Under the pieces are notes generated by a model. The model was given only the letters and a program-made list of their open reading frames with translations. It had not been told where the DNA came from and ran no database searches. 64,000 nucleotides of DNA, taken from the NCBI RefSeq assembly GCF_018446385.1, contig NC_055987.1:31812202-31876201 (forward strand). Direction: 5' to 3'. Each line of letters starts with the position of its first letter. The stretch's first letter is position 1. The position numbers and the translations under genes were made by a program. This document shows, piece after piece, positions 933 through 37,785 of the stretch. The DNA is from Zingiber officinale (taxonomy: Eukaryota > Streptophyta > Magnoliopsida > Zingiberales > Zingiberaceae).

Positions 933-1965
933 TGTAGGACCGTTAGATTCGATAGAGGGGTGAATATCGATTCGCAAAACAAGAGTATAAGCGCGGAAAA
1001 GTAAAATAGACACAGTTGTTTTACTTTGAGAGCCTGTGGCGACTCCTACTCGAAGGCGTGGTCCTTGACCACTTTCGTTGGGCAATCACTAGCAATTGAA
1101 ATAATGATTACAAAAGAATCGTACAGTGAATGCTAATGAAAACTAAAACAAATACCGACAAAAGGGAAAAGAGCGGGCGTAGTGTCTGAGCTTTGTTGGC
1201 GTCGCCGAGCGTCGAGCGGCAAGACCCGGAGAAGAGTTCTCACCTAATTGATTGATTACGAAGCTCCCTGCCCGGGCTTCTTTTATATCTTGTTCGCCGT
1301 AGCGCTGGATTCCTTTCGCCGCCTGGAATGTGACTGTGTTGCACAAACCATGATGCTCCACGTGGCGGCGACTCGGCTGGATAAATTCGCCTTCCCGGGA
1401 GCCCGGACCACCTTGTTCAAAAACCCTTTTCTGCAAAACAAAGTTAGTCCGAGGCAAATGTATATCCTACAACACAGATTATCAGCATAGTTAAAGTTCA
1501 ACAAATAAATAAAAGAGTATGACTTAGATTCCGTCTTTCCGAGACCGGAATCTAGTCACGATCTCGACTTAGACATCGAAATGGATCTAAGCCGGATCGA
1601 CGCCTAATGCCCCTTCCCGGAACGTCCTCACGTCCTCTCCTCGGTGACTTACCTCACTTACCAGAGGTCCGGTCAGCCCGTCGACCCGTCTGGACTTCTC
1701 GCCAAGCGTCCGGTCAGCCCGTCGACCCGCTTGGACTTCTCGCCAAGCGTCCGGTCAGCCCGTCGACCCGCTTGGACTTCTCGCCAGCTATCCGGTCAGC
1801 CCGTCGACCTAGCTGGACTTCGTGCCAGACATCCGGTCAGCCCGTCGACCTGTCTGGACTTTTCCTGCACACTTGATCAAAGTGTCAGACAACAACAAAA
1901 CTAACTTAACCTATTTGTCATTCATCAAAACCTGGGTTAGACCGTTAGTGCTACCCGCACCAACA
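933..1965 (-). repeat. 5' LTR of the left copia element
   Basis: The plus strand begins TGTAGGACCG and ends GCACCAACA. The minus strand therefore starts TGTTGGTGCGGGTAGC and ends with ACA, matching the solo LTR at 6108-7194, which lies in the opposite orientation. The right flank CTAGT (1966-1970) should be the target duplication; its partner is off the window. A TATA-like ATATAAAAG lies near 1280-1290 on the minus strand. The LTR contains the five-unit 41-bp hairpin array at 1665-1875. Confidence 0.85.
1665..1875 (-). repeat. 41-bp array of variable-stem hairpins
   Basis: The motif GGTCAGCCCGTCGACC recurs at 1671, 1712, 1753, 1794 and 1835, an exact 41-bp period. Around this constant core each unit has its own 7-bp arms, written CCAAGCG/CGCTTGG, CCAGCTA/TAGCTGG and CCAGACA/TGTCTGG. 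The arms differ between units but stay complementary within a unit. The core also pairs internally (GGTC with GACC). See findings. Confidence 0.85.
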
Positions 1966-6107: not shown

Positions 6108-7194
6108 TGTTGGTGCGGTTAGCACTAACGATTTAACCCAGGTTTTGATGAATGACAAATCAGGTTAAGTTAGTTTGTTGTTGTCTGACACTTTGATCAA
6201 GTGTGTAGGAGAAGTCCAGACAGGTCGACGGGCTGACCGGATGTCTGGCATGAAGCCCAGCTAGGTCGACGGGCTGACTGGATAGCTGGCGAGAAGTCCA
6301 AGCGGGTCGACGGGCTGACCGGACGCTTGGCGAGAAGTCCAGCTAGGTCGACGGGCCGACCGGATAGCTGGCAAGAAGTCCAGATGGGTCGAAGGGCTGA
6401 CCGAACGTCTGGCAGGTAAGTGAGGTAAGTCACTAGAGGGGAGTGACTGCGAGGACGCGTTCCCAGGAAGGGAACATTAGGCGTCGATCCGACTTAGATC
6501 CATCTTGGATATCTAAGTCGAGATCGTGACTAGATTCCGGTCTCGGAAAGACGGAATCTAAGTCATACTCTTTTTATTTATCTGTTGAACTTTAACTGTG
6601 CTGACAATCTGTTTTACAGGATGTATATTTGCCTCGGACTAACTCTATTTTGCAGGAGAAGGAATTCCTGGAGAAGGGATCCGGGCGCCCGGAGGCAAGT
6701 TCTATCCCAACTCGCGCGTCGCCACGTGGAGCTTGATGGTTGGACCTGCCACGTTCCACCAGGGCGCCCGGAAGGGATCCGGGGCGCCCCGAGCTTCATA
6801 TAAAAGAAGGGTCAGAGGGGAGCTTCAAATAACAACAGAAAGAAAGTCTTCTACTGCTTGACTGCTACTCTGCGCTCTAGCGACGCTAACAAAGCTCCGA
6901 CAAAGTGCTCCTTCTTCTTTGGTTAATTTTCTTTTCGGTATCACTTTATTTCCATTAGCATTTCTGTACCTTAATTTGTAATAGTATTTCGAATTGCTAG
7001 TGAATTGCCCAACGAAAGTACTCAAGGAGTACGGACCTTCGAGTAGGAGTCGTCACAGGCTCCGAACGAAGTAAAAAACACCTTGTTCAGTTTGCCTAAG
7101 TTTTTTATTATTCCGCTGCGCTTAACTCTTATTAACGCGATTTTTTCGAATCGATATTCACCCCCCCCCTCTATCGACGTTTCACGATCTAACA
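6108..7194 (+). mobile_element. Solo copia LTR inserted in the integrase gene
   Basis: It starts TGTTGGTGCGGTTAG and ends ACGATCTAACA, with perfect 5-bp target duplications GAACT at 6103-6107 and 7195-7199. Length is 1087 bp. It is the same family as the LTR at 933-1965 but in the opposite orientation. A TATA-like CATATAAAAG lies at 6797-6806. No internal sequence is present, so it formed by LTR-LTR recombination after a full element inserted. A five-unit 41-bp hairpin array sits at 6203-6425. Confidence 0.95.
6203..6425 (+). repeat. 41-bp array of variable-stem hairpins (solo LTR copy)
   Basis: Five units, each with the constant core GGTCGACGGGCTGACC, flanked by stems CCAGACA/TGTCTGG, CCAGCTA/TAGCTGG, CCAAGCG/CGCTTGG, CCAGCTA/TAGCTGG and CCAGATG/CGTCTGG. 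Only the last pair carries a mismatch, and it is wobble-compatible. Same organisation as 1665-1875 on the other strand. Confidence 0.85.
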
Positions 7195-10100: not shown

Positions 10101-10251
10101 TCATGGGTAGCAACTCAGCTCGATCAATTTGCAGTTGGTCGAAAGCCTTTTTGAATATGATGTTGACCGAGCTGCCTGTATCAATGAAAATGCGGTGAAT
10201 AGTATAATTAGCTATTACCGCTTTGATAATGAGGGTGTCGTCATGTGGCAT
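7195..10251 (-). CDS. Tat-lineage pol: protease, reverse transcriptase, RNase H, integrase N-part (fossil)
   Basis: A long open minus-strand frame of about 1000 codons. In order: an aspartic protease with the active site DTGSSVNIIF near residue 24; reverse transcriptase with WRVCIDFRNLNKACPKD, MPFGLKNAGATYQRLMN and the catalytic YVDDILIKS; RNase H with FVDGSSTRLGSGIG and the NEAEYEALIAGL motif; then integrase with the HHCC zinc region (HQGSCGGHPGG...CLSCQKYH), DIVGPFP and the end of the core at SDNGRQF. There the solo LTR at 6108-7194 splits integrase. In life this polyprotein would copy RNA to cDNA and insert it. The frame itself looks well preserved, but the insertion makes the element dead. 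Confidence 0.9.
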
Positions 10252-15147: not shown

Positions 15148-16566
15148 TATTAGGACCAAAAGTAGCTAGAGGGGGGGAATGAATAGCTCGTCGCGTTCGC
15201 TCGGTGCTCGGCGTTGCTTATTCCTTCAAAGATGTGCAGCGGAAATACAAAGAAACAAATCACACAACGCTAACAAGGTTGGTTTACTTGGTATCCACCT
15301 CACAAGAGGTGACTAGTCCAAGGATCCACACCTACGCACGCACCCTCCACTAATAAAACTCTCCTTTATGGTAACTACCAAGGGCGGAGAAGCCCTACAA
15401 GACTCAGTACAAGAAGAGAGGGAAAGGATACAAGAAATACAAGCTTACAAGCTTACAATGAGTACAAACCCTAACCCTAGCTTCTCTTCTTGACTTTGAT
15501 CCGCCTCTTGACTTGGAAACCTTCCAAGATCCTTCAAGAACTGGCGATCTGAGCTTTGCAAGTGCTGTGGAGAAGCTGGCGAAGATCTGAGATGAAACGG
15601 TGAAGTAATGCCGCAGCCAACGCACGCCTGCAGCTCAAATACGACGCAACGGTCGGATCCCGATCGATTCGAATATTCCCAATCGATCGGGGAGGCTTTG
15701 GATCGATCCACGGATCGATCCAGAGCGCCTCTGTGCTCTGGAAAAACGCTTGGATCGATCCACGGATCGATCCAGCGCTTATCGCGCAAAGCAGCCGGGT
15801 CCCAATCGATCCACTGATCGATTTGGACATCTGGATCGATCCACGAATCGATCCAGAGGCTCTTTACAGTAGAAGGCTGGATCGATCCATCGATCGATCC
15901 AAAGACGGTTTTGCCCAAACCAAGTCTCAAGCCTCTCGAACCAACATCCGGTCAACCTTGACTGTTGATACATCATGCCTAGCATCCGTCACTCCTTTGA
16001 CTGCTAAGACTTCCCACCAAGTGTCGGTCAATCCCTTTGACCCACTTGGACTTTACTCGTCGTGCCAAGTATCCGGTCACTCTCTTGTCCTACTTGGACT
16101 TCCACGAGATGTCCGATCATCCTTGATCCATCCGGATTTTCCTGGCTTCACTCACGGGACTTTCACCTGCCTAGCTTGATTTCCTGCCTAGCTTCACTCA
16201 CTAGGACTTTCACGACTCACCAGGATTTCAATCCGCCTAGCTTCACTCACTAGGACTTTCACTGGCTCCACTCACGATTTCTAATCCGCCTAGCTTCACT
16301 CACTAGGGCTTTCCTTCTGCCCGGCTTCACTCACGGAACTTTCACCTGGCTTCACTCATACCTAGGACTCCTAGTCGGTGTCAGGTCCTCTTGACCTACT
16401 TGACTCTCCTTCAATCACACCGATCAATCCTCGATCGAATCTCCCCATGAACAACTGCACCTGCATTGTCCATGTGTCTACATGTATTGTCAAACATCGA
16501 AACTATGACCAAGACCCAAGCTTGGTCAACTCAGTCAACCTTGACCTAAAGGATATTGCACCAACA
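15148..16566 (-). repeat. 3' LTR of the gag-only element
   Basis: Begins TATTAGGACC on the plus strand (TGTTAGGACC in the partner) and ends CACCAACA. It carries GATC hairpins at 15655-15905, GGTCA-loop hairpins at about 15940-16130 and TTCACTCA-loop units at about 16140-16370. It is more worn by small length changes in the hairpin arrays than the right LTR. Confidence 0.9.
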
Positions 16567-18911
16567 ATCTCCCTCTTTTTAATGTTTGACAATACCTTTA
16601 AGTTAGGACCATTCTGAGTTAAGCTAATCCCATAGCCTTAACTCCATTCATGCCAAAAGTATGAATGTTGGTTCCCTTCATTCTCCCCTATGAGATCCCC
16701 CATAGGTAATGAAAGCCTAGCTTAAACCACACATTCTCCCCCTATTGGCACACATCAACCCATCTTTGAGCACACATCAACCCATCTTTGAGCACACATC
16801 AACCCATGCCTCAATTTTAGGCACACTTCAACAAATGCCCCATTGTTGAAAACTCTCCCCCTGAAGAGTTGCTCATTGTTGTTCACAACTTCACTCGTTG
16901 TGGTCAACATGATAATGAAGGTCTCATACCCTTCATTATCCTTAACCTTACATTCTCCCCAATGTAGGCAAATGCCCATCCTTGAGCATTATCCACTTAG
17001 AACCCACTTGAACAATGAGGATATCCAATCCCCATTAAAGTTCAAATGCTTAACCTTGAGCATGTTCTTAACAGAAGGTTAACCACCTTCCAAGGTTCAT
17101 GAAAAATAATTTTTCATGTCTTTAAAGAGTCCCTCCCCCTAAAGACATGGTGGTAACTTCTATCATTGCACCAACAATGACTTGGAATTCCTAAACCTTT
17201 AGGAAACCCAAATTTTAGAAGTTTTGAGGTTTAAATGTTCAATATTTGAAACAACCTCAACCTAAACTTCTACTTAGTCTTCGTTAACCAATCCATCCTT
17301 GTTTTCAACATGAAAACACCCTTTTTATGTATACAAATGTATTTTGAGGGGTTAGGAATGGTTACATTGACTAAAATAGGTTTAGAGTGCTGAAATCAGA
17401 CCTTCCCAGTCAAAATCAACGTCCTGAATCGATTAGAGTTGGGTTCCAATCGATTCAACCTATTTGAATCGATCCACTGATCGATTCAGGATGTGTTGAT
17501 CGATCGGCTGATCGATCCAGTGAGCTTCTGCTCGCGAGAATTGCCTTCTGAATCGATCCACGGATCGATTCAGGCACTCCAATCGATCCATGGATCGATC
17601 GGAGCTCTGATAATTGCTGAAATTCCATTTCAGTCAACTTCAGAAACCCCTAGAAAATTCTACAAAAATCCAAAAATCATGAGATTTCGTGTAGACATTA
17701 TTTAGGGCATATACTATCAAAGAAAAATAGTTTTCTATGAAAATACTTCATATTTTCAAAGATTGACACAAACTTGAAAACTTGTAAAAACCTTAGAGTT
17801 TTCTTCAAGTTTGTGTCTAACTATTCAATGGTGATTACTATCAAAAGATAGCCTTCACCAAGGTTTTTCAAAAACATTTTAAAAACCTTTTAAAAACCAA
17901 TATCCCATCATGTTCCTTGGGCTTAATGCACATGACTTGTACATTAGCTTTCCCAATGATGGGAAAACACATAACTATGTGTTTTGATGAACCTAAAAAC
18001 TCAAAAGAATGCACTAAATCAACATCTTGAGCTTTGTTCATCATGCTAACATCTCACTTGTATCTAATGTGCACTAATCACATACAAGTCACCTTATAGT
18101 CTTTGTGAGATGTAGATTTTGGTTTTTGCCCTAATCTAGGGATCATGCATATCTATCTAGGCATTTTAGAAATATTAGACATCCACCTAGGATGTCACTT
18201 GTCAATAAGTGTTGTTAAATGCCATTTGTCCTTAATTACAAGGAATTAAATTTAACGCATGATTATGTTATGGCATACATCAAAATAAAATAATTTTCAA
18301 AAGAAAAATATTCTATAACTTCATGATGTATGGATGTCATGACATGGTATTTTTGGATTTTTCATAATAAAACATGAATGCAAAACTAGACATGATGTCA
18401 TGCCATATGATGGGCAAACAATCATGGCAAGATTTAGCATAAATAAAATATACCTAGATTAACTATCTAAGTATCCTTAAAGTCTTAGCTAAACTTACAA
18501 CTTAAACCTAGACTGTCCTAAAGTGCTTCAAGAGAATGCCAAAGCCTAAATTTGCATTTCTAATTTCCTTGATTTAATGTATGCCAATTGAAAATAAACA
18601 TGTCCTCAAATGTTGGCTTATTCCATTTTTCCTCAAGAGTGATTACATAAATCAAGGCCCGGATTGCCTTAAATTTCCAAGAGAATACCAAAATCCCAAC
18701 TTGGTATTTCTCAAGGTTTTCCCAATTTGTGCCATTTTAAGATAAAATCAATTTTTCACCATTAGACACATTTTACTCTTTCAAGGAGTAATCAATAGGT
18801 CCATTTCATTTTCAAAGGTTAACTAAAACCTTGAAAATGCTCCTTGAGTGTCAATTTCCTCAAAGTTGGGTTAACTACCCTTCTAATCGGAGTTGACACT
18901 CTCTAACCCAA
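16567..18911 (-). other. Non-coding internal region of the gag-only element
   Basis: No open frame of note and no pol motifs. Next to the LTR is the polypurine tract (plus-strand pyrimidines CAATCTCCCTCTTTTT). Further GATC-type hairpins lie at about 17425-17600, for example arms TGAATCGATC/GATCGATTCA. The stretch is conserved, without coding, in the relatives at 28847-31102 and 32761-34115, so it belongs to the family rather than being local decay. Confidence 0.75.
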
Positions 18912-20690
18912 CTATGGGGCAGAGAAGATGCTCCTAGGAACCCAACACCTATTGGTGCTCCTTGGATGCTCTAGGTACTCACTAGGGATAACTTCCCTAG
19001 ATACCTTCCTAGTGACCTTGTTGGGCTTCTTAGAAGCCTTGGTCACATTTTCTAGGTCAACTCTAGGGATAGCCTCCCTTGTGACCTTGTTAGTGACTTT
19101 CTTAGACTTCTTAGAAGTCTTAGTCACTTTGGTTGCAAAGATACTTCTAGGGATATCTTCCCTTGTATCTTTGACTTGACCTCTAGACTTAGGGTTTGTT
19201 CCATAGCTATATGGAACCCTATGATAACTAGGCACATCCTTTTTAGCTTTGGGTTTGTATCCCAAACCTCTATAGCCATTGGATGACCTTTGTGCTCCTA
19301 GCCCTAGGTATTGCTCATTTTGCCCTTTAAGGATATTCTCCATCCTTTTTAGGGTCTTTTCTAGTTTGTCAAGTCTTGACCTCAAGACTTGATTTTCTAT
19401 CATTAAATCCTTAGGTTTTGGTCCATGAGCATTTTTGATCTTGGGCATGTGTCTATTTTCCTTAGTGTTCCCGCCCAAGTGTCTATCTACCTTCCTAACC
19501 TTAGGTTGGGTAGTTTTGGCATGTAGGGCCACATGTTTTTCCTTAAAGCCCTCATGCTTTCTATTCTTATGGTAAATTGCATTGAAATGATAAAAGTTAG
19601 AACTATCATGCTTTTCACCATAATGTAAGGGGGTAGGCTCAATAAAAGATACCTTCTTCTTTACCTTGGAGGCTCCCCCTTGACTAGTGCCTCCTTGAGC
19701 CTTGACCACCTTCTTCCCCTTGGGGCATTGACTTCGGTAATGCCCCTTTTGATTGCAAGAGAAGCATATAATATGCTCCTTGCTCTTCTTTGTGTTGAGG
19801 ATGATCTCCTTGGGCTTCGCCTTGCCCTTTTGTGCCACTTGGCCCTTCTTCTTGGCCAATTTAGGGCACTTGCTCTTGTAGTGCCCATGTTCCCTACACT
19901 CAAAGCATATAATATGATTTTTATTTTTAATTGAAATATTTATACCTTTGCTTGTAGGGGTGGCATCTTTTCCTTTGGATCCGGAGGTGGAAGCTTCCTC
20001 TTGATCGAACCTTGATTCCCCTCCATTTGATTTTTCTTGACTTGTGGAGGTAGAAGCTTCTTCATCCTCTTCTTCTCTTGACCCGGATGTAGAGGATTCT
20101 CCTTCATCTTGATCCGGCGTCACCAAGGATTGCTCCCCCTCAATCCTAGAGGTGGAGGCTTCATCATCTTGAATATGAAACAAGGAGTATGCTCCCTCCT
20201 TGTTCCCTTCGTTGCATTCCCTTGAGGATGAAGCTTCTTGGATTTCCTCTTCTTCGGAGGTTGAGCATCTCTCAACCTCGGAGCCCTCCTCTTGGTCTTG
20301 CTCCAAAGAGTCACCCTCTCTGGATACTTCTTGCTCTTGTACAGTGGAGGGGATCTCTTCATGAAGCTTGGCCAATTTGCTCCATAATTCCTTTGCATCT
20401 TCAAATTCTCCAATTTTGCAAAGGATGGTGCTTGGCAATAAATTTACCAAGAGCTTGGTCACTTTATCATTGGCCTCGCACCTTTGGACTTGCTCTTGGC
20501 TCCACTTGCTCCTCTTGAGAACTTTGCCCTTTGAATTTCTTGGAGCCTCGAAGCCTTCCATTAGAGCAAACCATTGCTCTATCTCCATCATAAGAAAATT
20601 TTCAATTCTTGATTTCCAAGAATCAAAACTCGTGGAAGTGTATGGTGGAGCCACCCTTGTGTCAAATCCAAGTCCATCTTGGAATTGCAT
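18912..20690 (-). CDS. Gag protein of the non-autonomous copia-type element
   Basis: The open frame runs from 20927 (inside the LTR) to the stop at 18912. The first sensible start after the PBS is the Met at 20690 (MQFQDGLGFDTRVAPPYT), giving about 590 residues. Features in order: a DUF4219/UBN2-type gag domain (FDSWKSRIENFLMMEIEQWF; EFEDAKELWSKLAKLHEE); a long acidic Ser/Glu stretch; two CCHC zinc knuckles, CFECREHGHYKSKC and CFSCNQKGHYRSQC; a basic linker; a short coiled coil (LRSRLDKLEKTLKRMENILK); and a basic tail with TKVTKTSKKSKKVTNKV. Gag packages the RNA; reverse transcription would need pol from another element. The frame looks uninterrupted, which is notable given the element's age. 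Confidence 0.85.
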   Translation of the reverse strand: MQFQDGLGFDTRVAPPYTSTSFDSWKSRIENFLMMEIEQWFALMEGFEAPRNSKGKVLKRSKWSQEQVQRCEANDKVTKLLVNLLPSTILCKIGEFEDAKELWSKLAKLHEEIPSTVQEQEVSREGDSLEQDQEEGSEVERCSTSEEEEIQEASSSRECNEGNKEGAYSLFHIQDDEASTSRIEGEQSLVTPDQDEGESSTSGSREEEDEEASTSTSQEKSNGGESRFDQEEASTSGSKGKDATPTSKGINISIKNKNHIICFECREHGHYKSKCPKLAKKKGQVAQKGKAKPKEIILNTKKSKEHIICFSCNQKGHYRSQCPKGKKVVKAQGGTSQGGASKVKKKVSFIEPTPLHYGEKHDSSNFYHFNAIYHKNRKHEGFKEKHVALHAKTTQPKVRKVDRHLGGNTKENRHMPKIKNAHGPKPKDLMIENQVLRSRLDKLEKTLKRMENILKGQNEQYLGLGAQRSSNGYRGLGYKPKAKKDVPSYHRVPYSYGTNPKSRGQVKDTREDIPRSIFATKVTKTSKKSKKVTNKVTREAIPRVDLENVTKASKKPNKVTRKVSREVIPSEYLEHPRSTNRCWVPRSIFSAP

Positions 20691-20810
20691 CTTGAAGTTG
20701 AGCTTTTTGATATCTTTGACTTTGACAATTTTTGCTTCAACTTCTTCACCCTCTAGCTTTTCTTGATATGCTTGACCCTTCCGGCGATGATTCCGGTGAA
20801 GAGCGGCCTT

Positions 20811-20822
20811 GCTCTGATACCA
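20811..20822 (-). other. Primer-binding site (initiator Met-tRNA)
   Basis: The plus strand GCTCTGATACCA is TGGTATCAGAGC on the element strand, the classic copia PBS complementary to the 3' end of initiator Met-tRNA. It lies two bases from the inner LTR edge at 20825. Confidence 0.9.
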
Positions 20823-20824
20823 CT

Positions 20825-22302
20825 TGTTAGGACCAAAAGTAGCTAGAGGGGGGGAATGAATAGCTCGTCGCGTTCGCTCGGTGCTCGGCGTTGCTTGTTC
20901 CTTCAAAGATGTGCAGCGGAAATACAAAGAAACAAATCACACAACGCTAACAAGGTTGGTTTACTTGGTATCCACCTCACAAGAGGTGACTAGTCCAAGG
21001 ATCCACACCTACGCACGCACCCTCCACTAATAAAACTCTCCTTTATGGTAACTACCAAGGGCGGAGAAGCCCTACAAGACTCAGTACAAGAAGAGAGGGA
21101 AAGGATACAAGAAATACAAGCTTACAAGCTTACAATGAGTACAAACCCTAACCCTAGCTTCTCTTCTTGACTTTGATCCGCCTCTTGACTTGGAAACCTT
21201 CCAAGATCCTTCAAGAACTGGCGATCTGAGCTTTGCAAGTGCTGTGGAGAAGCTGGCGAAGATCTGAGATGAAACGGTGAAGTAATGCCGCAGCCAACGC
21301 ACGCCTGCAGCTCAAATACGACGCAACGGTCGGATCCCGATCGATTCGAATATTCCCAATCGATCGGGGAGGCTTTGGATCGATCCACGGATCGATCCAG
21401 AGCGCCTCTGTGCTCTGGAAAAACGCCTGGATCGATCCACGGATCGATCCAGCGCTTATCGCGCAAAGCAGTCGCGTCCCAATCGATCCACTGATCGATT
21501 TGGACATCTGGATCGATCCACGAATCGATCCAGAGGCTCTCTGTTCGCTAGGAAAGGCCTGGATCGATCCACTGATCGATCCAGCACTTGGTTTTTGCCC
21601 AAAACCAAGTCCCAAGCCTCTCAAACCAACATCCGGTCAACCTTGACCTGTTGATACATCATGCCTAGCATCTGGTCACTCCTTTGACCTGCTAGGACTT
21701 CCCACCAAGTGTCTGGTCAATCCCTTTGACCCACTTGGACTTTACTCGTCGTGCCAAGTATCCGGTCACTCTCTTGTCCTACTTGGACTTCCACCAGATG
21801 TCTGATCATCCTTGATCCATCTGGATTTTCCCTTGCCTGGCTTCACTCACCAGGACTTTCACCTGGCTTCACTCACCAGGATTTCCTTCTGCCTAGCTTC
21901 ACTCACTAGGACTTTCACCTGGCTTCACTCACCAGGATTTCCAATCTGCCTAGCTTCACTCACTAGGACTTTCACCTGGCTTCACTCACCAGGATTTCCA
22001 ATCTGCCTAGCTTCACTCACTAGGGCTTTCCTTCTGCCTGGCTTCACTCACCAGGACTTTCACTTCTGCTGCCTAACATACCAGTTAGGACTTCCTAGTC
22101 AGGTATTCGGTCACTCTTGACCTACTTGACTCTCCTTCAATCACACTGATCAATCCCTGATCAGAATCTCCAATCTCCCCACATGAACAACTGCACCTGC
22201 ATTGTCCATGTGTCTACATGTATTGTCAAACATCGAAACTATGACCAAGACCCAAGCTTGGTCAACTCAGTCAACCTTGACCTAAAGGATATTGCACCAA
22301 CA
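20825..22302 (-). repeat. 5' LTR of the gag-only element, with three hairpin arrays
   Basis: Begins TGTTAGGACC and ends GCACCAACA on the plus strand; 1478 bp. Three arrays follow one another. GATC hairpins lie at 21335-21585; for example 21559-21584 has 11-bp arms CTGGATCGATC/GATCGATCCAG around CACT. GGTCA-loop hairpins lie at about 21625-21830, with stems CCTAGCA/TGCTAGG, CCAAGTG/CACTTGG, CCAAGTA/TACTTGG and CCAGATG/CATCTGG. Short hairpins with loop CTTCACTCA lie at about 21835-22060, with stems CCTGG/CCAGG and CCTAG/CTAGG. In element orientation the arrays fall in U3. Confidence 0.9.
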
Positions 22303-24904
22303 ACAATGACATCCTTTTACCCGTTCTCGGTTCTCCACCTAGATTGAAGCATCCAAAACGACAAGAAACTGGGTTTTATATTTTATTGATGGGTTGATCC
22401 GATTTTTTTTCATCGACTCCTTCTCAGTTCTATGAGCGTTTGAAACTGACTTTTATTTTTATGGATAGGTGGTCCGATTTTCCCCCATAAATACTAATTT
22501 TTTCCCCCTTAAAAAGAATATTATAGTTAGCTTTTTTTAGGACTTTACCTATTTTAAATAATAAATTTCTATTAGTTTTTTTAAAAAAAATCAATGAGTT
22601 TTTATTAAATGCACTATCGGCGGATTATTTTCCCATTATTTCATACAATGACATCCGTCTATTCGTTCTCAGTTCTCCACGGAAATTGAAACATCCGAAA
22701 TGACAGGAAATTGAGTTTTATGTTTTATAGATCGGTTGATCTAATTTTTTTTTCCTTCATAAATATCAGATTTTGTTTCCCTTGTAAACATAATATTATA
22801 ATTCCCATTTTATCTATTTTAAAGTATTAAAATTAATTTAATTTTGCGTTTGACTCATTCTCGATTCTCCGAGCGTCTGAAATCGACTTTTATTGTTATG
22901 GATCGGCGGTCCTATTTTTCCCCATAAATACCAACTTTTTTTTCATTTTTAAAAGAATATTATAGTTAGCTCTTTTTTAGGTCTTTACCTATTTTAAATA
23001 ATAAATTCCCATTAAATTAAAAAAATCAACGAGTTAATTAATAAATGCATTGTCGGCGGACTATTTTCCCATTATTTCACACAATTACATCCTTCTACTC
23101 GTTCTCGGTTCTCCACGGAGATTGAAGCATACAAAATGACAAGAAATTGGATTTTATGTTTTTTAGATTGGTTGATCCGATTTTTGTCTTCCATAAATAT
23201 TAGATTTTGTTTCCTTTATAAACGTAATATTATAGTTTCCATTTTACCTATTTTAAAATATTAAAATTGATTTAATTTTGCTTCTCACTCCTTCTCGGTT
23301 CTCAGTGTTGAAACCGACTTTTATTTTTATAGATCAGTGGTCCGATTTTCCCCCATAAATACCAATTTTTTCCTTTAAAAAAATATTATAGTTAGCTTTT
23401 TTTTTAAGGTGTTTACCTATTTTAAAATAATAAATTTCTATTAATTTTTTTTAAAAAAATCAACGAGTTTTTATTAAATGCACTATTGGCGGATTATTTT
23501 TCCATTATTTCACACAATGACATCGTCTTTACCTATTTAAATAATAAATTTCCATTAAATTAAAAAAAAAATCAACGAGTTTCTATTAAATGCACTATCG
23601 GCGGATTATTTTTCCATTATTTCACACAATGACATCCGTCTATTCATTCTCGGTTCAACACGGAGATTGAAGCATTCGAAATGATAAGAAATTGAGTTCT
23701 ATGTTTTATAGATCGGTTGATCCGATTTTTTTCCTTCATAAATATCATATTGTGTTTCCCTTATAAACATAATATTATAATTTCTATTTTACCTATTTTA
23801 AAATATTAAAATTAATTTAATTTTGCGTTCGACTCATTCTCGGTTCTCCGAGCGTTTGAAATCGACTTTTATTTTTATGGATCGGCGGTCCGATTTTCCC
23901 CCATTAACTTTTTTTTTCATTTTTAAAAGAATATTATAGTTAGCTTTTTTTTTTTAGGTCTTTACCTATTTTAAATAATAAATTTCCATTAAATTAAAAA
24001 AATCAACGAGTTAACTAATAAATGCATTGTCGGCGGACTATTTTCCCATTATTTCAGACAATGACATCTTTCTATTTGTTCTCAGTTCTCCACGGAGATT
24101 GAAGCATCCGAAACAACTTAAACTGGATTTTATGTTTTATAGAACTATTGATCCGATTTATTTCCTTCATAAATATCAGATTTTGTTTCCTTTATAAACA
24201 TAATATTATTATTTTCATTTTACCTAGTTTAAAATATTAAAATTAATTTAATTTTGCATCTCACTCCTCAATTTTGAGCATATGAAATCGACTTTTATTT
24301 TTATAGTCCGATTTTCCCCCATAAATATCAATTTTTTTCCTTTAAAAAGGATATTATAGTTAGCTTTTTTTAGGTGTTTACCTATTTTAAAATAATAAAT
24401 TTCTATTAATTTTTTTAAAAAATCAACGAGTTTTATTAAAATGCACTATTGGCGAATTATTTTTCCATTATTTCACACAATGACATCCTTTTACCCGTTC
24501 TCAATTTTCCACGGAGATTGAAACATCCAAAACGACAAGAACCTGAGTTTTATGTTTTATAGATAGGTTGATCCGATTTTTTTTTTCTCCATAAATATCA
24601 GATTTTGTTTCCCTTGTTTCATAGTATTATAGTTTCCGTTTTACCTATTTTAAAATATTAAAATTAATTTAATTTTACATCTTACTCCTTCTCGGTTCTT
24701 CGAGCGTCTAAAATCGACTTTTATTTTTATGGATCGGTGGTCCGATTTTCCCCCATAAATACCATTTTTTTTCCTTTAAAAAGAATATTATAGTTAGTTT
24801 TTTAGGTCTTTACCTATTTTAAATAATAAAATTCCATTAGCTTAAAGAAAATCAACGAGTTAACTAATAAATGCACTGTCGTCGGACTCTTTTATCATTA
24901 TTTC

Positions 24905-25236
24905 ATTTCCCTATGAAATCGAACCGTCCGAACCGACCGAACAATAAGATATCGGTTAATTCGGTTTTCGACCGAATTAATCGAATTAACCGAATTTTAA
25001 AACCCTATTCGATTTTACCTTTAAAAAAAAGATTTGATGTAATTAATTATATTTTAAAATAAAAATTAATTAAAATAATATTCTTATTCGGTTTAACCGA
25101 ATTACAAAATTCAAAATCGAAACCGAACCGAATTAATCGAAAACTGAACTGAATTTTCAAAAAAAAAACGAAAACTGAATTAACTGAATCGAATTTCTAA
25201 ATTCGGTTGGTTCGATTCGATTAATTGCTTACCCTA
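24905..25236. repeat. CGGTT/AACCG-rich insert in the satellite
   Basis: A stretch made largely of CGGTT, AACCGAATT and TCGAATTAACCG words replaces part of one monomer (from about CACACAATG to ACTGG). It is rich in short inverted repeats. I see no coding and no clear target duplication. Possibly a degenerate MITE or simple-sequence expansion. Confidence 0.5.
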
Positions 25237-25795
25237 GTTTTATGTTTTATAGATGATTGGTCCGATTTTTTTTCCTACATAAATATCATATTTGTTTCTC
25301 TTATAAACATAATATTATAGTTTCCATTTTACCTATTTTATAATATTAAAATTAATTTAATTTTGCATCGATCGGTGGTCCTATTTTCTCCCATAAATAC
25401 CATTTTTTTCTTTTAAAAAGAATATTATAGTTAGCTTTTTTTTTTTAGGTCTTTACCTATTTTAACATAATAAATTTCCATTAAATTAAAAAAAATCAAC
25501 GAATTTTTATGAAATGCACTATCGGCGGATTATTTTTTCACTATTTCACACAATGACATCCTTCTACCTTTCATGGTTCTCCATGGAGATTGAAGCATCC
25601 GAAACGATAAAAAACTAGGTTTTATGTTTTATAGATAAGTTGATCCGATTTTTTTACCTCCATAAATATTAAATTTTGTTTCCCTTATAAACATAATATT
25701 ATAATTTCTATTTTACCTATTTTAAAATATTAAAATTAATTTAATTTTGCATCTCACTCTTTGGTTCTCCGCAACCGAAAGCTTTTATTTTTATG

Positions 25796-26021
25796 CTGCA
25801 AAAGGTTGGAACCGCCAACCTAGCGGCCCCCTCAACCCGGCCCCACAAGTATGAGAGGGAGTAAATCACGGTGAATACGGGTCCAGCTATGACATGGCGG
25901 TCTTAGGTGTTTAGCACGGACAGATATTGATGTTATCGCAATTGCTGCCGCAGACCCTCGACCTCTCGACTCATGCTGCAAGAATCCATGTCATAACCAG
26001 TTGATCCCGCCCGTGGGGGCT
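25796..26021 (-). mobile_element. SINE (tRNA-like head) with 19-bp target duplication
   Basis: A 226-bp insert is flanked by identical 19-mers GAAAGCTTTTATTTTTATG at 25777-25795 and 26022-26040. On the minus strand it begins AGCCCCCACGGGCGGGATCA, followed by an A-box-like CTGGTTATGACATGG and a B-box-like GAGGTCGAGGGTCTG, the spacing expected of an RNA polymerase III promoter. The 3' end lacks a long poly(A). Long perfect duplications indicate LINE-type target-primed insertion, and their identity suggests a fairly young event. The SINE family is not recognised. Confidence 0.75.
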
Positions 26022-27171: not shown

Positions 27172-28846
27172 TGTTGGATCACTTCAGGAGCTAGAAGTGG
27201 GGGAAGAGATGAATAGTTCATCTTGCTCGTTAGCTCGCTTTGTCGATATTGAATTTGCAATAGAAAAACTCAAAGCAAACTCTCATATTAATAAGTAAGA
27301 TTTACTTGGTATTCACCTCAAAATGAGGTAATTAATCCAATGATCCATGCTGAGCACACTCTCCATTATGAAAACAACTTCTTCTCGGAACAACCGGAGG
27401 TGGAGAAACCTCTACAACTCAAATTCAAGAAAATACAACTCGAAACAAGTAAACAAATGTAAATACAAATCGAAAACGACTTCACACTTTGAACCTTGAA
27501 TCCTTGAGCTTCTCTTGCTTTGAATGCCTCTTGAAGATAGGAAATGCAGCAGCACTTTTCTTCCCAAGAGCTCCAAGAACTGGCGTGAAGAGATGTGGAG
27601 AAGAGATGTAGCGTTTAAACTCACCGTCGCCTTTATATCTGCGCTTTTAGGGCTCTCAATCGATTGGAACTGCTCCCAATCGATAGTCACGTCAGATCCC
27701 AGCGATCCCAACTGTCCAAAGCCTGCATCCCGAGCAATGGTCATATCACAATCGATTAATTGATTGATTGGGGAGGCTTGAATCGATCGACCGATCGATT
27801 CAGAGTGTCTCTGTACTCTTGCTAGAAAAAGTTTGAATTGATTGACCGATCGATTCAGCTTTCTCGCTTCCGCGCGATAATTCCAGCTCCAATCAATTGG
27901 CTGATCAATTGGGCCAGCCTCGACTCACAGCACGCATCCAATCGATCAACTGATTGATTGGACTCCGGTTCAATCAATCGGTTGATCGATTGACCTCCCT
28001 TTAACTTGCCTAACTCAAGTCCAAGGTTCCTAAACCCAACATCCGGTCAACCATGATCTATTGGGACTCCTCATACCTAGCATCCGGTCAACCTTGACTT
28101 GCTGGGACTTCTTCACCAAGTGCCCGGTCAAACCTTTGACCCACTTGGATTTTTCACCTTGTGCCAAGTATCCAATCAATCCTTTTACCTTCTTGGACTT
28201 CCCAACACCAGGTGTCCGATCAACCTTGATCCACCTAGATTTCCACGTGACTGGCTTCACTCACGAGGTCTTTCCATCTTCCTAGCTTTACTCACTAGGA
28301 CTGTCACCTAGCTTCACTCATCAGGATTTTCCTCTGCTCGGCTTCACTCATCGGGGTTTTCACCTAGCTTCACTCACCAGGATTTTCCCAGCTACCTGAC
28401 TTCACTCACCAAGACTTTCACCTAGCTCCACTCACTAGGATTTTCAACTGCTCAACTACACTCATTGGGACTTTCACCTAGCTTCACTCATTAGGGGTTT
28501 CAACTACCCGGCTTCACTCACTATGACTTCTAATTGCCTGACTTTACTCACCAGGACTTTCACACCAAGTGTCCGTTCAACACTGACCCACTTGGATCTT
28601 TCATTTTTGTCAACCATCTTGTTGGACTTACCCTTGTCTAACCTTTAGTTAGGACTTTCCTGATTAAGTATCCAGTCAACGTTGACCTACTTGACTCTTC
28701 TCTCTGAATGGATGATTGCTCCTGCGATCTCTAATCATGTCAAATCATCTCCATGTATTGCCAAACATCGAAACCCAAACATCACGACTCAGGCTTGAGT
28801 CAACTCAAGTTTGGTCAACCTTGACCAGAGGAATATTGTACCAACA
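27172..28846 (-). repeat. LTR of the gag-only family, second copy
   Basis: Starts TGTTGGATCA and ends GTACCAACA. It follows the order of 20825-22302: GATC-type hairpins (about 27655-27995, for example arms TGAATCGATCG/CGATCGATTCA), GGTCA-loop hairpins (about 28036-28250), TTCACTCA-loop units (about 28250-28560), then CCAAGTG/CACTTGG again. It is older than the copy at 15148-22302, judging by wider divergence. No left-side target duplication could be paired. Confidence 0.85.
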
Positions 28847-31102: not shown

Positions 31103-32760
31103 TATTAGGGTCGAAATATGCTAAGGGGGGGTGAATAGCTCGTCGCATTTGTTGATGTGCTTCTTCGTTGATGTGCAGCGGAATAAACAACAAGAAACAC
31201 ACTCACAACGCTAACACTAAGGATTTACTTGGTATCCATCTGAAGAAGAGATGACTAATGCAATGATCCGACCCTCACACACTCATCCACTATGAAAACA
31301 CTGATTTTCGATAACTACCGAAGGTGGAGAAACTTTGTACAAACTCACCCACAAAGATACACAAGAAGAATAAAATACAAGCTAATACAATATTAAATCT
31401 TATAAGATTTACACAGCAGAAACCTTAGCTTGCCTTTCTTATTGCTTGAATACACCTCTTGACTTGCTTAGAAGTGCAACAACACTCCTCTCTAAGCATT
31501 CAAGATCTGGTGTGTGTTGGTGAGCTCTGTGGAGAAAGTGGCGTGGAGGAATTGAGAGCGCAAGAGAAGAACTACTGAGAAAATCGCTCGCCAAAAACTT
31601 TAACCTACGCCAACGGTCATATCCCAATAGATTGCCCTATCGATTGGGGAGGCTGAATCAATTGACTGATCGATTCTGCCTTCTTCTATGCTCTCGCGTC
31701 TATGTGAGAATACTGACCTCAATCGATTGACCAATCGATTGAGGAGCCTAATTGATCGGCTGATCGATTGGAAAACATTCTGTGCTCGCGACATTTCTTC
31801 CCAATCGATCGCTCGATCGATTAGGCCAACCTTCTTCGCAGCACACATCCAATCGATCGATTGACCCACCTTTGACTTGCCTAAACTCAAGTCTAAGGTC
31901 CCCAATTCCAACATCCAGTCAACCGTGACTTGTTGGAACCTCATGCCTAGCATCCGGTCAACCTTGACTTACTAGCACTTCTTCACCAAGTGTCCGGTCA
32001 ATTCCTTTGACCCACTTGGACTTTTCTCCTCGTGCCAAGTGTCCGGTTAACTTTGACCCATTTGGACTCACTGTCTCGTGCCAAGTGTCTGATCTTCCAT
32101 AATCCACTTGGACTTCCACCAGATGTCCGTTCACCCTTGACCCATCTGGATTTCCACGTGCTTGGCTTCACTCACCAGGACTTTCCATCTGCTTAGCTTC
32201 ACTCACCAGGACTTTCCCATGGCTCGACTTCACTCACCGGGACTTTCGCTTGTCTGGCTTCACTTACCGGGACTTTCACCTTCTTGGCTTCACTCACCAA
32301 GATTTTCGCCTAGCTTCACTCACTAGGATTTTCTAACTTCCTAGCTTCACTTACTAGGTTTTTTACCTGACTTCACTCACCAAGACTTTCAACTGCCTAA
32401 ACTCCAATTAGGACTTTCTCAATCAAGTATCTGGTCAACCCTTTGACCTACTTGACTCTTCTTCACATCTAGGTCTTTCACCTGACTTCACTCACTAGGA
32501 CTTTCAATTGTCTAAACTCCAGTTAGGGCTTTCTCAGTCAAGTATCCGGTCAATCCTTTGACCTACTTGACTCTTCTTCACATCTAACTGGTTAACCTTG
32601 ACCAGAGGAGAATTGTACCAATAATCTTTCCAAACGGACAATTGCACCTTCAATCTCCATGTATTGTCAAACATCGAAACTCAAACATTAAGACTCAAGC
32701 TTGAGCCAACTCAAGCTCGGTCAACCAAGTCAACCTTGACCTAGGGATGTTGCACCAACA
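31103..32760 (-). repeat. LTR of the gag-only family, third copy
   Basis: Starts TATTAGGGTCG and ends GCACCAACA, with the same three-array layout: GATC hairpins about 31620-31870, GGTCA-loop hairpins about 31905-32150, TTCACTCA-loop units about 32155-32400. Additional stem pairs seen here are TCAAGTA/TACTTGA and CTTGG/CCAAG. Confidence 0.85.
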
Positions 32761-35227: not shown

Positions 35228-37785
35228 TGGGTACTTTGTATCCTTGTCGGATGGATAGCCATTACTCAATGTCAGTTTTTAGATAGATCTCCATCCTCTG
35301 CTTCCAGTAGGGGAAGTTGTCTCCTTTGAATAGCGGTAGATGCACAATGTTATATCCCTCATGTTGTGTCATTTACTTGTTGAGATAGAAGTTTTAAGAC
35401 CGTTCTAAGACTTGATCTTGGGGTAAGTAGTGTAGGAGAAAGAGAGAGAAATAGGGTTCGAGTGGTGTTACACCAATCTCAGGCAATTAGAAAAAACTAA
35501 GTCGAGGAATCTTATCTGAAAAGGTAATTGTACTAGTTCAAATAGAATAAGAGAAAAAAAGGCTTAAACTCGAAAAAATGAAGCGAAATAAAAATGACCT
35601 CATCTCGATTGGTGGTTGTACTAATTTAGAGTGAATTCACTCTGATACCACTTGTAAGACTGTAAGACGCTAGAGTGGGGGTGTGAATAACATTCTTAAA
35701 AAGTTCTAAAATCACAACTAAAGTTAACGCAATGGAAAAGAAGAGAGAAGGAAAACACATGCTAACACAAGTATTTTTTACTTGGTTCGGAGTTTTTCGC
35801 CAACTCCTACTCCAAGGCCCGCACGTGAGAGTGCTTTCGTTGAGAAATCACTATCAGATCTGATAACTTTACACAATTTTAAGTATAAGAACAATTAAAT
35901 TAAAATATACCTACTCGTAGTAGATAGAAATCAAAGCTCAGAGTCGGTGTCGGTTTGCCGGCAACGATTGGATGTCACGGAGTAGTAGCGTGGCAGTAAT
36001 AGGATGTGTTCACAGTAGCAGAAAAGTCATTGCATCTTGTAGAGAGATGTGTGCCTAGTGTGCTGCTCGAGCAGGACATATATAGGTTGTGGAAGGTGCC
36101 TTCAGCCTCCTTTGAGGTGCATCCACAAGCAATATTTATCCCCTTATCTTCAGTGATGATAAACTCCGTTGTTGGTGCAATCGACCTCTAGGGTTTTGAT
36201 GTTTGACAATATGACCAAGGGTTGACTCAAACAAGACTTGATGTTTGGGAGAGAGAAGTCTAGCTAGGACTAGATGACTAGCAAAGGTAAGTCCTAACCA
36301 AAGGTTAGGCAAAGTGGAAGTCCTGGTGAGTAAAGTCAGATCCTAGTGAGTGAAGCTAGGTATTGGAAGTTCTGGTGAGTGAAGTCAGGCCCTAGTGAGT
36401 GAAGCTAGGTGGTGGAAGTCCCAGTGAGTGAAGCCGGACCCTAGTGAGTGAAGCTAGGTGGTGGAAGTCCCGGTGAGTGAAGCCGGGCCCTAGTGAGTGA
36501 AGCTAAGTGGTGGAAGTCCCAGTGAGTGAAGTCGGGCCTAGTAAGTGAAGCTAGGTGGAGGAAGCCCTGGCGAGTAAAGTTAGACAATAAAAGTCCTAGT
36601 GAGTGAAGATAGGTGGAGGAAGCCCTGGTGAGTGAAGTCAGGCAATGGAAGTCCTAGTGAGTGAAGCTAGGCAGTCGACCAGACCAGCGAATCTTAAAAT
36701 CTGTTAACACTGTTTTACCTTACCATTTTATCTATTGTGCTAATTTAGTATTGCAAGGAAGTTCAGTTAAGTCGACGGGCTAACCGGATAGCTAGCCTGA
36801 AGTTCAGACAAGTCGACGGGCTGACCGGATGTCTGGTAGATAAGTTAAGGTAATTCACTGGAGGGGAGTGGCTTGGTGAGAACGCGTTCCCAGTTAGGGA
36901 ACTTAGGCGTCGATCCAACTTAGAACCATTTCGGGAATCTAAGTTGAGATCGTGACTAGATTCCAGTCTCGGTAAGACGGAATCTAATTACTACTCTTTT
37001 ACTTTAATTGTGCTAATACTTTATTTTGCAGGGTAGTATAATTTGCATTTACTTTATACTAACATTTTCTTGCAGGAAATTGAGTTGCTGAAAAATGAGG
37101 GTCCGGGCGCCCGGAGTTCAAAACTCTATCCCAACGCAAACGTGGAGCGCGCTAGTTGGCCGAACCTATATCACAGTCCAGGCGTCCGGAAGGGATCTGA
37201 GCTCCCAGAGCGTCCTATATAAGGAGGCCTCCACCTGGAGCAAAGTACAACAACTTCTTCCTACAACTGCTCTATTGCGCACTGCTCCTGCGACGCTGCG
37301 AAGCCTCTCCGATAACCTGTAGTTCAAGTTCTCTTTATTGTTGTCGGTATTTTCTTTATAATAGTTCTTGTACTTACTATTTTAATCAATTTTCGAACTG
37401 TTAGTGATTGTCTAACGAAAGCCCCCGACGAGTGCGGACCTTGGAGTAGGAGTCGACAAAGGCTCCTAACCAAGTAAAACTGGTTCGTGTTAGCATTGTG
37501 TTTTGTTTTCGTTTTCCGCTGCGTACTCGATTTCGCTACGATATTTTTATTCGATTGCTATTCACCCCCCTCTAGCGATTTTTACGATCCAACATCCGCA
37601 ACCTTCGATTTTTATCCTCTGGAAGACACCTTCAAAGTTCTCCAAGGCGCCTCCGGTGCCTCCAAAAGCATGCGAGGTGCCTCCGCGCCCTCCCACGCTG
37701 AGTCTCCGACCAAGCATACGAGGAGCCTCCACTCGCATGAAAACCTCGATGCATAAAACATTCTTTACACTTAAACATGGTATTT
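35228..37785 (-). mobile_element. Broken copia 5' end (gag start, PBS, LTR) hosting a solo LTR
   Basis: Minus-strand order: an LTR from about 37785 to 35653 (starting TGTAAGACTG on the plus strand), a PBS at 35640-35650 (TGGTATCAGAG on the element strand), a leader, and a short gag start near 35230-35340 resembling that of the left-edge element. The rest of the element is missing. The LTR is split by the solo LTR at 36170-37594. The outer LTR edge near 37785 is an estimate. A fossil with several breaks. Confidence 0.65.
36170..37594 (+). mobile_element. Solo LTR with mixed features of both copia families
   Basis: Starts TGTTGGTGCAATCG and ends CGATCCAACA. The flanks TCCGT (36165-36169) and TCCGC (37595-37599) are a near-perfect target duplication. 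The first third has about 12 TGAGTGAAG-loop units (36315-36675), with stems CCTAG/CTAGG and CCCGG/CCGGG, as in the gag-only family. From about 36760 it has GTCGACGGGCTGACCGG hairpin units, then a stretch matching 6425-6560 of the other family (GAACGCGTTCCCAG, GTGACTAGATTCC). A TATA-like TATATAAG lies at 37216-37223. Confidence 0.85.

What the first reader, a model, noticed from the sequence alone, without database searches (positions are those of the whole stretch)
21625..21830. A second LTR family has the same kind of hairpin with GGTCA...TGACC loops
In the gag-only element's LTR, units of about 43 bp have stems CCTAGCA/TGCTAGG, CCAAGTG/CACTTGG, CCAAGTA/TACTTGG and CCAGATG/CATCTGG, and near the U3 end TCAAGTA/TACTTGA (clearest at 31103-32760). 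The loop has its own inner pair GGTCAA/TTGACC. Stem, loop logic and period match the arrays at 1665 and 6203 although the LTRs are otherwise different. Two families sharing a hairpin code suggests a common function (packaging, dimerisation, transcription control, small-RNA evasion) or exchange between families.
Basis: partly seen in the sequence, partly recalled or inferred. Interest (0 to 1): 0.9.

Follow-up and report, generated by a model that had tools for sequence, protein, structure and literature searches.

The report
Covarying hairpin arrays in Sirevirus LTRs
The control region of a plant jumping gene (a Sirevirus-like LTR retrotransposon) carries a row of small hairpins whose two arms change together, a variant of a palindromic control region already known in this group, and the two LTR families here share it most likely because they belong to one lineage.

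Summary
Five hairpins lie at 21625-21824, and the same unit occurs in the seven LTRs examined: a 7-bp outer stem, a one-sided 3-nt bulge, an inner GGTC[A/G]...TGACC stem and a 4-7 nt loop. Outer arms differ between units but stay complementary: 94% of cells paired, 59 double-changed cells against 19 in shuffles. A covariance model trained on gag-only-type LTRs also finds all 10 units of the GC-rich LTRs, on the LTR sense strand, with no hit below E 0.01 outside the seven LTRs.

The LTRs carry Sirevirus (Ty1/copia) signatures, and a third LTR at 36170 links the two families.

The nearest known thing is the palindromic repeated-motif (RM) region of Sirevirus LTRs (PMC2829016). Not found described in my searches: a bulged two-part unit with covarying arms. 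It is most likely a U3 enhancer array (inferred). G.T and A.C mismatches are about equal, a weak argument against selection on the RNA. Template-switch repair of the arms is the main rival.

The parts
20825..22302 (-). E1 5' LTR (TGTTGGTGC...CCTAACA) of the gag-only element; followed on the minus strand by AGTGG + PBS TATCAGAGC (20811-20824)
   Evidence: 5-bp target duplication ACAAT 22303-22307 / 15143-15147
15148..16566 (-). E1 3' LTR; its hairpin zone is damaged relative to the 5' LTR
21625..21824 (-). array of five type A (long, bulged) hairpins of the finding: 21625-21655, 21664-21696, 21705-21738, 21754-21786, 21794-21824
   Evidence: three of the five folded
22099..22129 (-). sixth type A hairpin of this LTR (TCAAGTA arm, one mismatch), near the LTR 5' end
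21836..22055 (-). array of 8 type B short hairpins CCT[G/A]G-TGAGTGAAG-C[C/T]AGG (sense), 8 of 8 perfect
21336..21584 (-). type C ATCGAT-rich quasi-palindromes in the LTR (similar to the Tnd-1 RM ACAATCGATTGT)
   Evidence: PMC2829016 Table 3
17425..17604 (-). type C quasi-palindromes in the internal (linker) region of E1
18912..20822 (-). gag reading frame of E1 (start codon not determined; copia-type gag, two CCHC knuckles by eye); no ORF of 120 aa or more between it and the 3' LTR
27172..28846 (-). LTR D (3' LTR) with seven type A hairpins (28035-28238, 28565-28595, 28664-28694) and 11 type B units
31105..32760 (-). LTR E3 (3' LTR, PPT AGGGGGAG-AT at 32761-32770; low end approximate) with eight type A hairpins (31907-32149, 32423-32455, 32538-32570) and 9 type B units
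36170..37594 (+). LTR F (probably solo; imperfect target duplication TCCGT/TCCGC): type B array 36322-36671 and two S-form type A units at 36763-36836; bridge between the two families
6108..7194 (+). LTR S1 (solo, target duplication GAACT), GC-rich type A array 6216-6412, inserted in a gypsy integrase frame
933..1965 (-). LTR S2, GC-rich type A array 1661-1857; followed by AGTGG-TATC (degenerate PBS) at 924-932

Best explanation
This is the palindromic cis-regulatory (RM) region of a group of Sirevirus-like Ty1/copia LTR retrotransposons. Shown: the LTRs carry Sirevirus end signatures; the arrays lie in the 5' part of the LTR, upstream of a TATA-like box in the four LTRs that have one; the unit is homologous in both LTR families; the core GGTC[A/G]..TGACCGGA and its one-sided bulge are conserved, while the outer arms differ between units but remain complementary. 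Inferred: the constant core is a repeated binding site that makes the array an enhancer of the LTR promoter. The dyad symmetry around it is kept because the unit works as a fold-back (extruded DNA, or single-stranded cDNA during reverse transcription) and because arms are easily re-copied from each other by template switching. The 3' LTR copy of U3 also puts the hairpins into the 3' end of the transcript, where a plant can cut them into small RNAs; that is probably a cost rather than the purpose.
For: Sirevirus features: PBS AGTGG/TATCAGAGC, PPT-AT-TG junction, polyC signal near the LTR end, inverted repeat around the junction, extra PPT copies, compared with PMC2829016. Position: the first type A hit lies 108 (S1), 108 (S2), 152 (D), 173 (E1_5) and 190 bp (E3) inside the LTR, but 431 in the damaged E1_3 and 634 in F, and all end by 853 (worked out from the coordinates). 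TATA-like boxes lie near 692, 679, 1214 and 1047 in S1, S2, D and F, downstream of the type A units. PMC2829016 gives a start at 200-400 bp, then 300-500 bp more, upstream of TATA. Homology: model R1 gives 37 hits at E<0.01, 37 of 37 inside the seven LTRs (15% of the window) and on the LTR sense strand; 21 of the 37 are its training units, 5 are in E1_3 (copy of a training LTR), and 11 are in S1, S2 and F. Pairing carries information: those 11 pass E<0.01 with structure, 3 of them without. Covariation. At six hairpins matched between E1_5, D and E3, of 126 outer-pair comparisons 99 are unchanged, 20 changed on one side and 7 on both, all 7 Watson-Crick to Watson-Crick (permutation p 0.00055; the comparisons are not independent and the 7 reflect about four changes). 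About equal mismatches (type B 16 G.T, 17 A.C; type A 13 and 12) lean to a DNA-level rather than RNA-level dyad.
Against: No expression, binding or small-RNA data. Half-sites of plant W-box type (TTGACC; recalled name) are enriched in E1_5, E1_3, D and E3 (12, 12, 13 and 23 against 1.7-3.0 expected) but not in S1, S2 or F (1 each), so no single known factor fits all. E1_5, E1_3 and E3 lack a TATAWA box. Type A units start nearer the LTR end than the published RMs, S1 and S2 have fewer units (5) than the published minimum (8), and the compact RM core is absent. None of the RM consensus sequences in the table read has this bulged two-part form. Only seven LTRs of one window were available.
Confidence: 0.6

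Rival explanations
1. The covariation is mutational: template switching between palindrome arms (in host replication or reverse transcription) keeps repairing one arm from the other, with no selection for the fold.
For: This process is proposed to create compensatory changes and perfect stems in RNA genes (PMC8794818, abstract and passages). The 7 double changes at matched hairpins are Watson-Crick to Watson-Crick. There is no clear G.T excess. The hairpin zone is mutable or error-prone in E1: 63 of 65 differences between its two LTRs lie in 755 of 1478 bp (the zone edges were chosen after seeing the data).
Against: The one-sided 3-nt bulge is kept in the 33 units counted, from six LTRs, whereas blind arm-to-arm copying should tend to remove it. 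Several core and bulge columns are at least 90% identical in 32 rows. Hairpin order is collinear in E1, D and E3 apart from extra units in D and E3 (by eye).
Confidence: 0.22
2. The hairpins are selected as RNA structures in the genomic RNA (packaging, dimerisation, 3' end formation or export).
For: Orientation is the same in all seven LTRs, a bulged stem-loop is the predicted RNA fold for 6 of 7 units folded, and a G.U pair (sense strand) stands at inner position 5 in 11 of 12 S/F units. With the damaged E1_3 kept, identical units collapsed and that fixed position included, type A counts are 25 G.T to 13 A.C.
Against: Without E1_3 and the fixed position, sense-strand G.T is not commoner than A.C (16 to 17 in type B; 8 to 5 outer and 5 to 7 inner in type A). 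Power is limited, because old copies decay symmetrically. An array in U3 is absent from the 5' end of the RNA (inference), where the packaging and dimerisation signals of Ty1 lie (start of the abstract of PMC5454406 in the listing).
Confidence: 0.15
3. The two families share the array through recombination (exchange) rather than simple descent; LTR F is a mosaic with an E-like 5' half and an S-like 3' half.
For: F has type B hairpins like E1/D/E3 and type A units like S1/S2. Its 3' end scores 73 to S1 and 39 to S2 (shuffle maximum 22 for both); its 5' end scores 33 to E1_5, E1_3 and E3 (maxima 22-25) and 26 to S1 and S2 (maxima 27 and 24).
Against: The same pattern is expected of an intermediate that kept both arrays. 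F's 3' end also matches E1 and E3 (39-43, maxima 24-27), and the LTRs share end signatures. One window cannot tell the two apart.
Confidence: 0.2
4. The array exists chiefly as a small-RNA target or decoy (silencing signal or evasion device).
For: Each of the seven LTRs contains 110-nt windows with predicted MFE below -40 kcal/mol, the limit used for miRNA-like regions in PMC10760457, which reports (citing Bousios 2016, which I could not open) excess small RNAs on Sirevirus palindromes. In S1 and S2 such windows cover the type A array.
Against: Such windows also occur in many places outside these LTRs (not corrected for G+C). In E1, D and E3 the lowest values fall on the type C stretch, not on the type A hairpins. 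A harmful signal should be lost, not preserved by paired changes (inference).
Confidence: 0.1

Closest known systems
Sirevirus LTR repeated motifs (RM boxes), Bousios et al. 2010, PMC2829016 (sections 8, 9 and 13 and passages read)
   Same: High-copy palindromes in the first half of the LTR, upstream of TATA where one is found; half-sites close to CGGTC/GACCG (Osr8 CGGTCAGACCG, Osr10 CGGTCTGACCG, Vitis CGGTCGACCG) and, for type C, ACAATCGATTGT (Tnd-1); additional copies in the linker.
   Different: Here the unit is a 31-34 bp bulged hairpin with GGTC[A/G] and TGACC 4-7 bp apart and an outer stem whose sequence differs between units with compensation. The published RM consensus sequences are 10-20 bp palindromes with 66.5-100% identity within an element. 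Three palindrome classes coexist in LTRs E1, D and E3. Linker type C copies occur in E1, which has no ORF of 120 aa or more between gag and the 3' LTR, whereas linker RMs in the paper went with env.
Palindrome clusters of maize Sirevirus LTRs as small-RNA hotspots (Bousios 2016, not held; described in PMC10760457, passages read)
   Same: Clustered palindromes in the LTR cis-region with strong predicted fold.
   Different: The maize Copia consensus given there is one motif, CACCGGACNNNGTCCGGTG; no small-RNA data here.
Template-switch-maintained hairpins (PMC8794818, abstract and passages)
   Same: Paired changes keep stems complementary.
   Different: Inferred there for RNA genes; here repeated units in a retrotransposon LTR with a constant bulge.

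Membership tests
Sirevirus (Ty1/copia) | LTR end CA, then A[T/G]TGG, then PBS TATCAGAGC | tested here: met
   E1: CCTAACA-AGTGG-TATCAGAGC exact; S2 has AGTGG-TATC with the rest degenerate; the other LTRs are solo or 3' copies, where it cannot be seen
Sirevirus (Ty1/copia) | PPT AGGGGGAG-AT-TG at the 3' LTR, with further PPT copies upstream | tested here: met
   E3 exact at 32761-32770; E1 and D have altered forms; further minus-strand AGGGGGAG upstream of the 3' LTRs at 16736, 16855, 17133, 28969, 29011, 32864. The octamer also occurs in the E1 gag (19673, 20133) and at 58212, so single copies are not specific. Not testable in solo LTRs S1 and F
Sirevirus (Ty1/copia) | Inverted repeat around the PPT/3' LTR junction | tested here: met
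   E3: TATTGTCAAACATCAAAA before the PPT against TTTCGATGTTTGACAATA in the LTR; E1 and D show the same arms with one further change each; by reading, no score computed
Sirevirus (Ty1/copia) | PolyC-rich integrase signal about 21 bp from the LTR end | tested here: met
   Pattern found in E1 (both LTRs), E3, S1 and F; D and S2 carry interrupted or shorter C runs by eye
Sirevirus (Ty1/copia) | Large gag with CCHC knuckle and downstream coiled coil | tested here: inconclusive
   zf-CCHC 2.7e-07, Retrotran_gag_2 0.0027 (below its curated cut-off); coiled coil judged by eye only
Sirevirus (Ty1/copia) | Position in a reverse transcriptase tree | not tested
   E1 shows only a gag ORF; no ORF of 120 aa or more is listed between 22303 and 38848. 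Broken pol remnants in the internal regions of D and E3 were not searched for
Sirevirus RM boxes | Palindromic, high copy (8 or more), upper half of LTR, upstream of TATA | tested here: inconclusive
   E1_5, D and E3 have 6, 7 and 8 type A plus 8, 11 and 9 type B units and F has 2 plus 13, but S1 and S2 have only 5 type A; TATA-like box found in 4 of 7
Sirevirus RM boxes | Core CGG-CCG palindrome with short spacer (tested as CGGTCN0-2GACCG) | tested here: not met
   0 of 7 LTRs hold it; the half-sites are present but 4-7 bp apart. Hence filed as a variant, not as a typical RM. Other published RM cores were not searched for

The most novel reading that the evidence does not exclude
The arms are individually diversified, self-matching 'addresses': most palindromes in an array have a partner sequence different from their neighbours' (6 of 6 distinct in E1_5, but two neighbours identical in S2), so that every unit folds on itself, and selection acts on the fold of a bulged core (stem, 3-nt bulge, stem, loop) presented many times in the U3, in DNA or cDNA. 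Sirevirus RMs would then be structural elements rather than simple binding sites.
Probability: 0.2. Interest if true: 0.75.

Novelty: new variant of a known kind. Interest (0 to 1): 0.45.

Why it matters
In the Sireviruses of PMC2829016 the palindromes within an element are mostly similar copies (66.5-100% identity, commonly above 85%), which makes it hard to tell whether sequence (a binding site) or complementarity (a fold) is kept. Here the arms differ between units yet stay complementary, which separates the two and makes the open role of Sirevirus palindromes directly testable by genome-wide covariation, strand asymmetry and arm-swap reporters. It also shows three palindrome classes in one LTR.

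Tried and rejected
WRKY W-boxes as the common code: rejected, since the sites are enriched in E1_5, E1_3, D and E3 but not in S1, S2 or F. RNA-strand selection through G.U tolerance: no clear signal. Type A hairpins as the strongest folds: not in E1, D and E3, where the lowest 110-nt energies lie on type C. The host genome is not held, none of the collections offered is a plant collection, and the metagenome collection is capped at 0. Paper searches for unit sequences found 0 papers. In searches on Sirevirus palindromes (15 of 76 papers listed, 1 of 1, 15 of 16) and on LTR tandem hairpins with compensation (11 of 12) I saw nothing in titles and starts of abstracts that describes this unit; that speaks only for this library and those lists. 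LTR damage in E1: sequencing or assembly error in hairpin DNA and true hypermutability could not be separated.

Full report
What was checked. The stretch 21625-21830 was read on both strands and hairpins of this type in the window were listed. On the LTR sense strand a type A unit reads, for example, CCAAGTG-GGTCA-AAGGGAT-TGACC-AGA-CACTTGG: a 7-bp outer stem, a 5-bp inner stem, a loop of 4, 6 or 7 nt (13, 18 and 2 of 33 units) and a 3-nt bulge on the 3' side only. A second, short class, type B, reads CCT[G/A]G-TGAGTGAAG-C[C/T]AGG. A third, type C, is made of ATCGAT-rich quasi-palindromes.

More than chance. In the 21 units of LTRs E1_5, D and E3 the named structure has 94.0% of cells paired (shuffled mean 82.4), 36 double-changed cells (10.7) and covariation score 0.467 (0.234), with 0 of 500 shuffles reaching any of the three. 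The number of pairs with a change on both sides (8 against 5.7; 33 of 500) and the number of further pair types (15 against 15.1; 340 of 500) are not exceptional. With the S1, S2 and F units added (32 rows given, 30 distinct; one of two identical S2 units, 1743-1775, and the 5 units of E1_3 were left out) the values are 94.4%, 59 against 19.1, and 0.532 against 0.263, again 0 of 500; the other two measures are reached by 34 and 40 of 500. The units are related by duplication, so these shuffles overstate significance. The matched comparison across E1_5, D and E3 (99 unchanged, 20 one-sided, 7 double changes in 126; p 0.00055) also counts dependent pairs: about four changes, at hairpin 1 position 1 (two), hairpin 4 position 7 and hairpin 6 position 5.

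Where it lies. The gag-only element E1 spans 15148-22302 on the minus strand, has a 5-bp target duplication ACAAT, and sits in a roughly 433-bp satellite. Six other LTR positions matter: the E1 3' LTR, LTRs D and E3 (3' LTRs of other copies), F and S1 (solo), and S2. In S1, S2, D and F a TATA-like box lies downstream of the type A units; E1 and E3 have none of the searched form. The arrays are thus in U3, so a transcript would carry them only in its 3' end (inference from LTR biology).

One lineage, not two unrelated families. Model R1, built only from E1_5, D and E3, gave 37 hits at E<0.01: 8 in E3, 7 in D and 6 in E1_5 (these 21 are the training units), 5 in E1_3, 5 in S2, 5 in S1, 1 in F and none elsewhere. 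One of the two F units was missed. Of 9 further hits up to E 1, four (0.011-0.071) are the opposite strand of known units and five (0.24-0.75) are weak; one of these, 29125-29150, lies outside the LTRs. The E-values are rough, since calibration was short. A sequence-only model found 3 S units at E<0.01. The LTR ends carry Sirevirus signatures. Direct similarity of S and E ends is slight: at the 5' end all six comparisons score 19, below the best of 200 shuffles (23-27); at the 3' end they score 19, 19, 22, 26, 31 and 31 against shuffle maxima of 22-31, two of six exceeding theirs. F aligns to S1 at the 3' end (73 against 22) and less strongly to E1 and E3 there (39-43 against 24-27), and to E at the 5' end (33 against 22-25), and it carries both type B and S-form type A units. 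Descent with F as an intermediate is the simplest account; a recombinant F is not excluded.

RNA or DNA. In structured RNA one expects G.U to be tolerated more than A.C. On the LTR sense strand, type B stems of E1_5, D, E3 and F (all units) have 16 G.T and 17 A.C, unique units 13 and 17. Type A outer stems have 8 and 5, inner stems 5 and 7, with inner position 5 of the S/F units counted apart (G.T in 11 of 12). The 5 type A units of the damaged E1_3 were dropped; with them, identical units collapsed and the S/F position included, the counts were 11 and 5 outer and 14 and 8 inner. So there is no clear sign of RNA-level selection, but most mismatches are in old copies whose decay is symmetric, so the test is weak.

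Hairpin zones differ in the two E1 LTRs. LTRs of one insertion start identical, yet 63 of 65 differences (31 substitutions, 27 deletions, 5 insertions in the 3' LTR relative to the 5') fall in 755 bp that hold the arrays, 2 in the other 723 bp. The zone was bounded by the differences themselves. With bounds set by the arrays alone (21336-22129), 57 of 65 fall inside, counted by hand. The damage seems to be mainly in the 3' LTR: 2 of its 5 listed type A units keep perfect outer stems, against 4 of 6 in the 5' LTR, and all 8 type B units of the 5' LTR are perfect; polarity was not worked out difference by difference. One-sidedness suggests assembly error in hairpin DNA or a local event rather than a steady mutation rate.

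Comparison with what is known. PMC2829016 (sections 8, 9 with Table 3, and 13 read, other parts as passages) describes palindromic RM boxes in Sirevirus LTRs with stress-factor-like sites, upstream of TATA, plus linker copies with env. The present arrays fit the general place and half-site, and in most LTRs the copy number, but not the compact CGG-CCG core: 0 of 7 LTRs hold CGGTCN0-2GACCG. PMC10760457 (passages) reports that palindrome clusters of maize Sireviruses attract small RNAs. PMC8794818 (abstract, passages) offers template switching as a source of compensatory change. None of these, as far as read, shows covarying arms in a bulged repeated unit.

Judgement. The thing is the U3 palindromic region of a Sirevirus-like group: known in kind, new in form. 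The enhancer role is inferred. Whether the arms covary through selection for folding or through arm-to-arm copying is open; the constant bulge favours some selection.

Noticed in passing
15148-16566 versus 20825-22302: The two LTRs of one element are nearly identical outside the hairpin arrays but differ at 63 places within them, with 27 small deletions in the 3' LTR: assembly error in hairpin DNA or true fragility.
   Followed up: partly
36322-36671 and 21836-22055: Type B stems alternate: CCTAG with CCTGG in E1_5 (last pair excepted), CCTAG with CCTGG-, TCTGG- or CCC[A/G]G-type stems in F; perhaps only amplification of a two-unit repeat.
   Followed up: no
17425-17604, 29649-29672, 33514-33720: Type C ATCGAT palindromes also lie in internal linker regions; in E1 there is no ORF of 120 aa or more between gag and the 3' LTR, whereas published linker RMs go with env.
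   Followed up: partly
12562-15147 and 22303-25800: A roughly 433-bp AT-rich satellite array interrupted by element E1.
   Followed up: partly
4151-5318: 65-bp unit repeated 18 times, downstream of a gypsy pol (7189-10251 minus, continued at 5452-6042) whose integrase frame is split by solo LTR S1.
   Followed up: no
35644-35652: AGTGGTATCAGAG after ...CTTACA on the minus strand, like another LTR end with PBS, next to F; F may be inserted in a further Sirevirus LTR.
   Followed up: no
32725-32744, 28813-28826, 22268-22282, 16532-16546: A short GGTCAAGGTTGAC palindrome near the start of LTRs E3, D and E1, outside the array (weak model hits, E 0.24-0.54).
   Followed up: no
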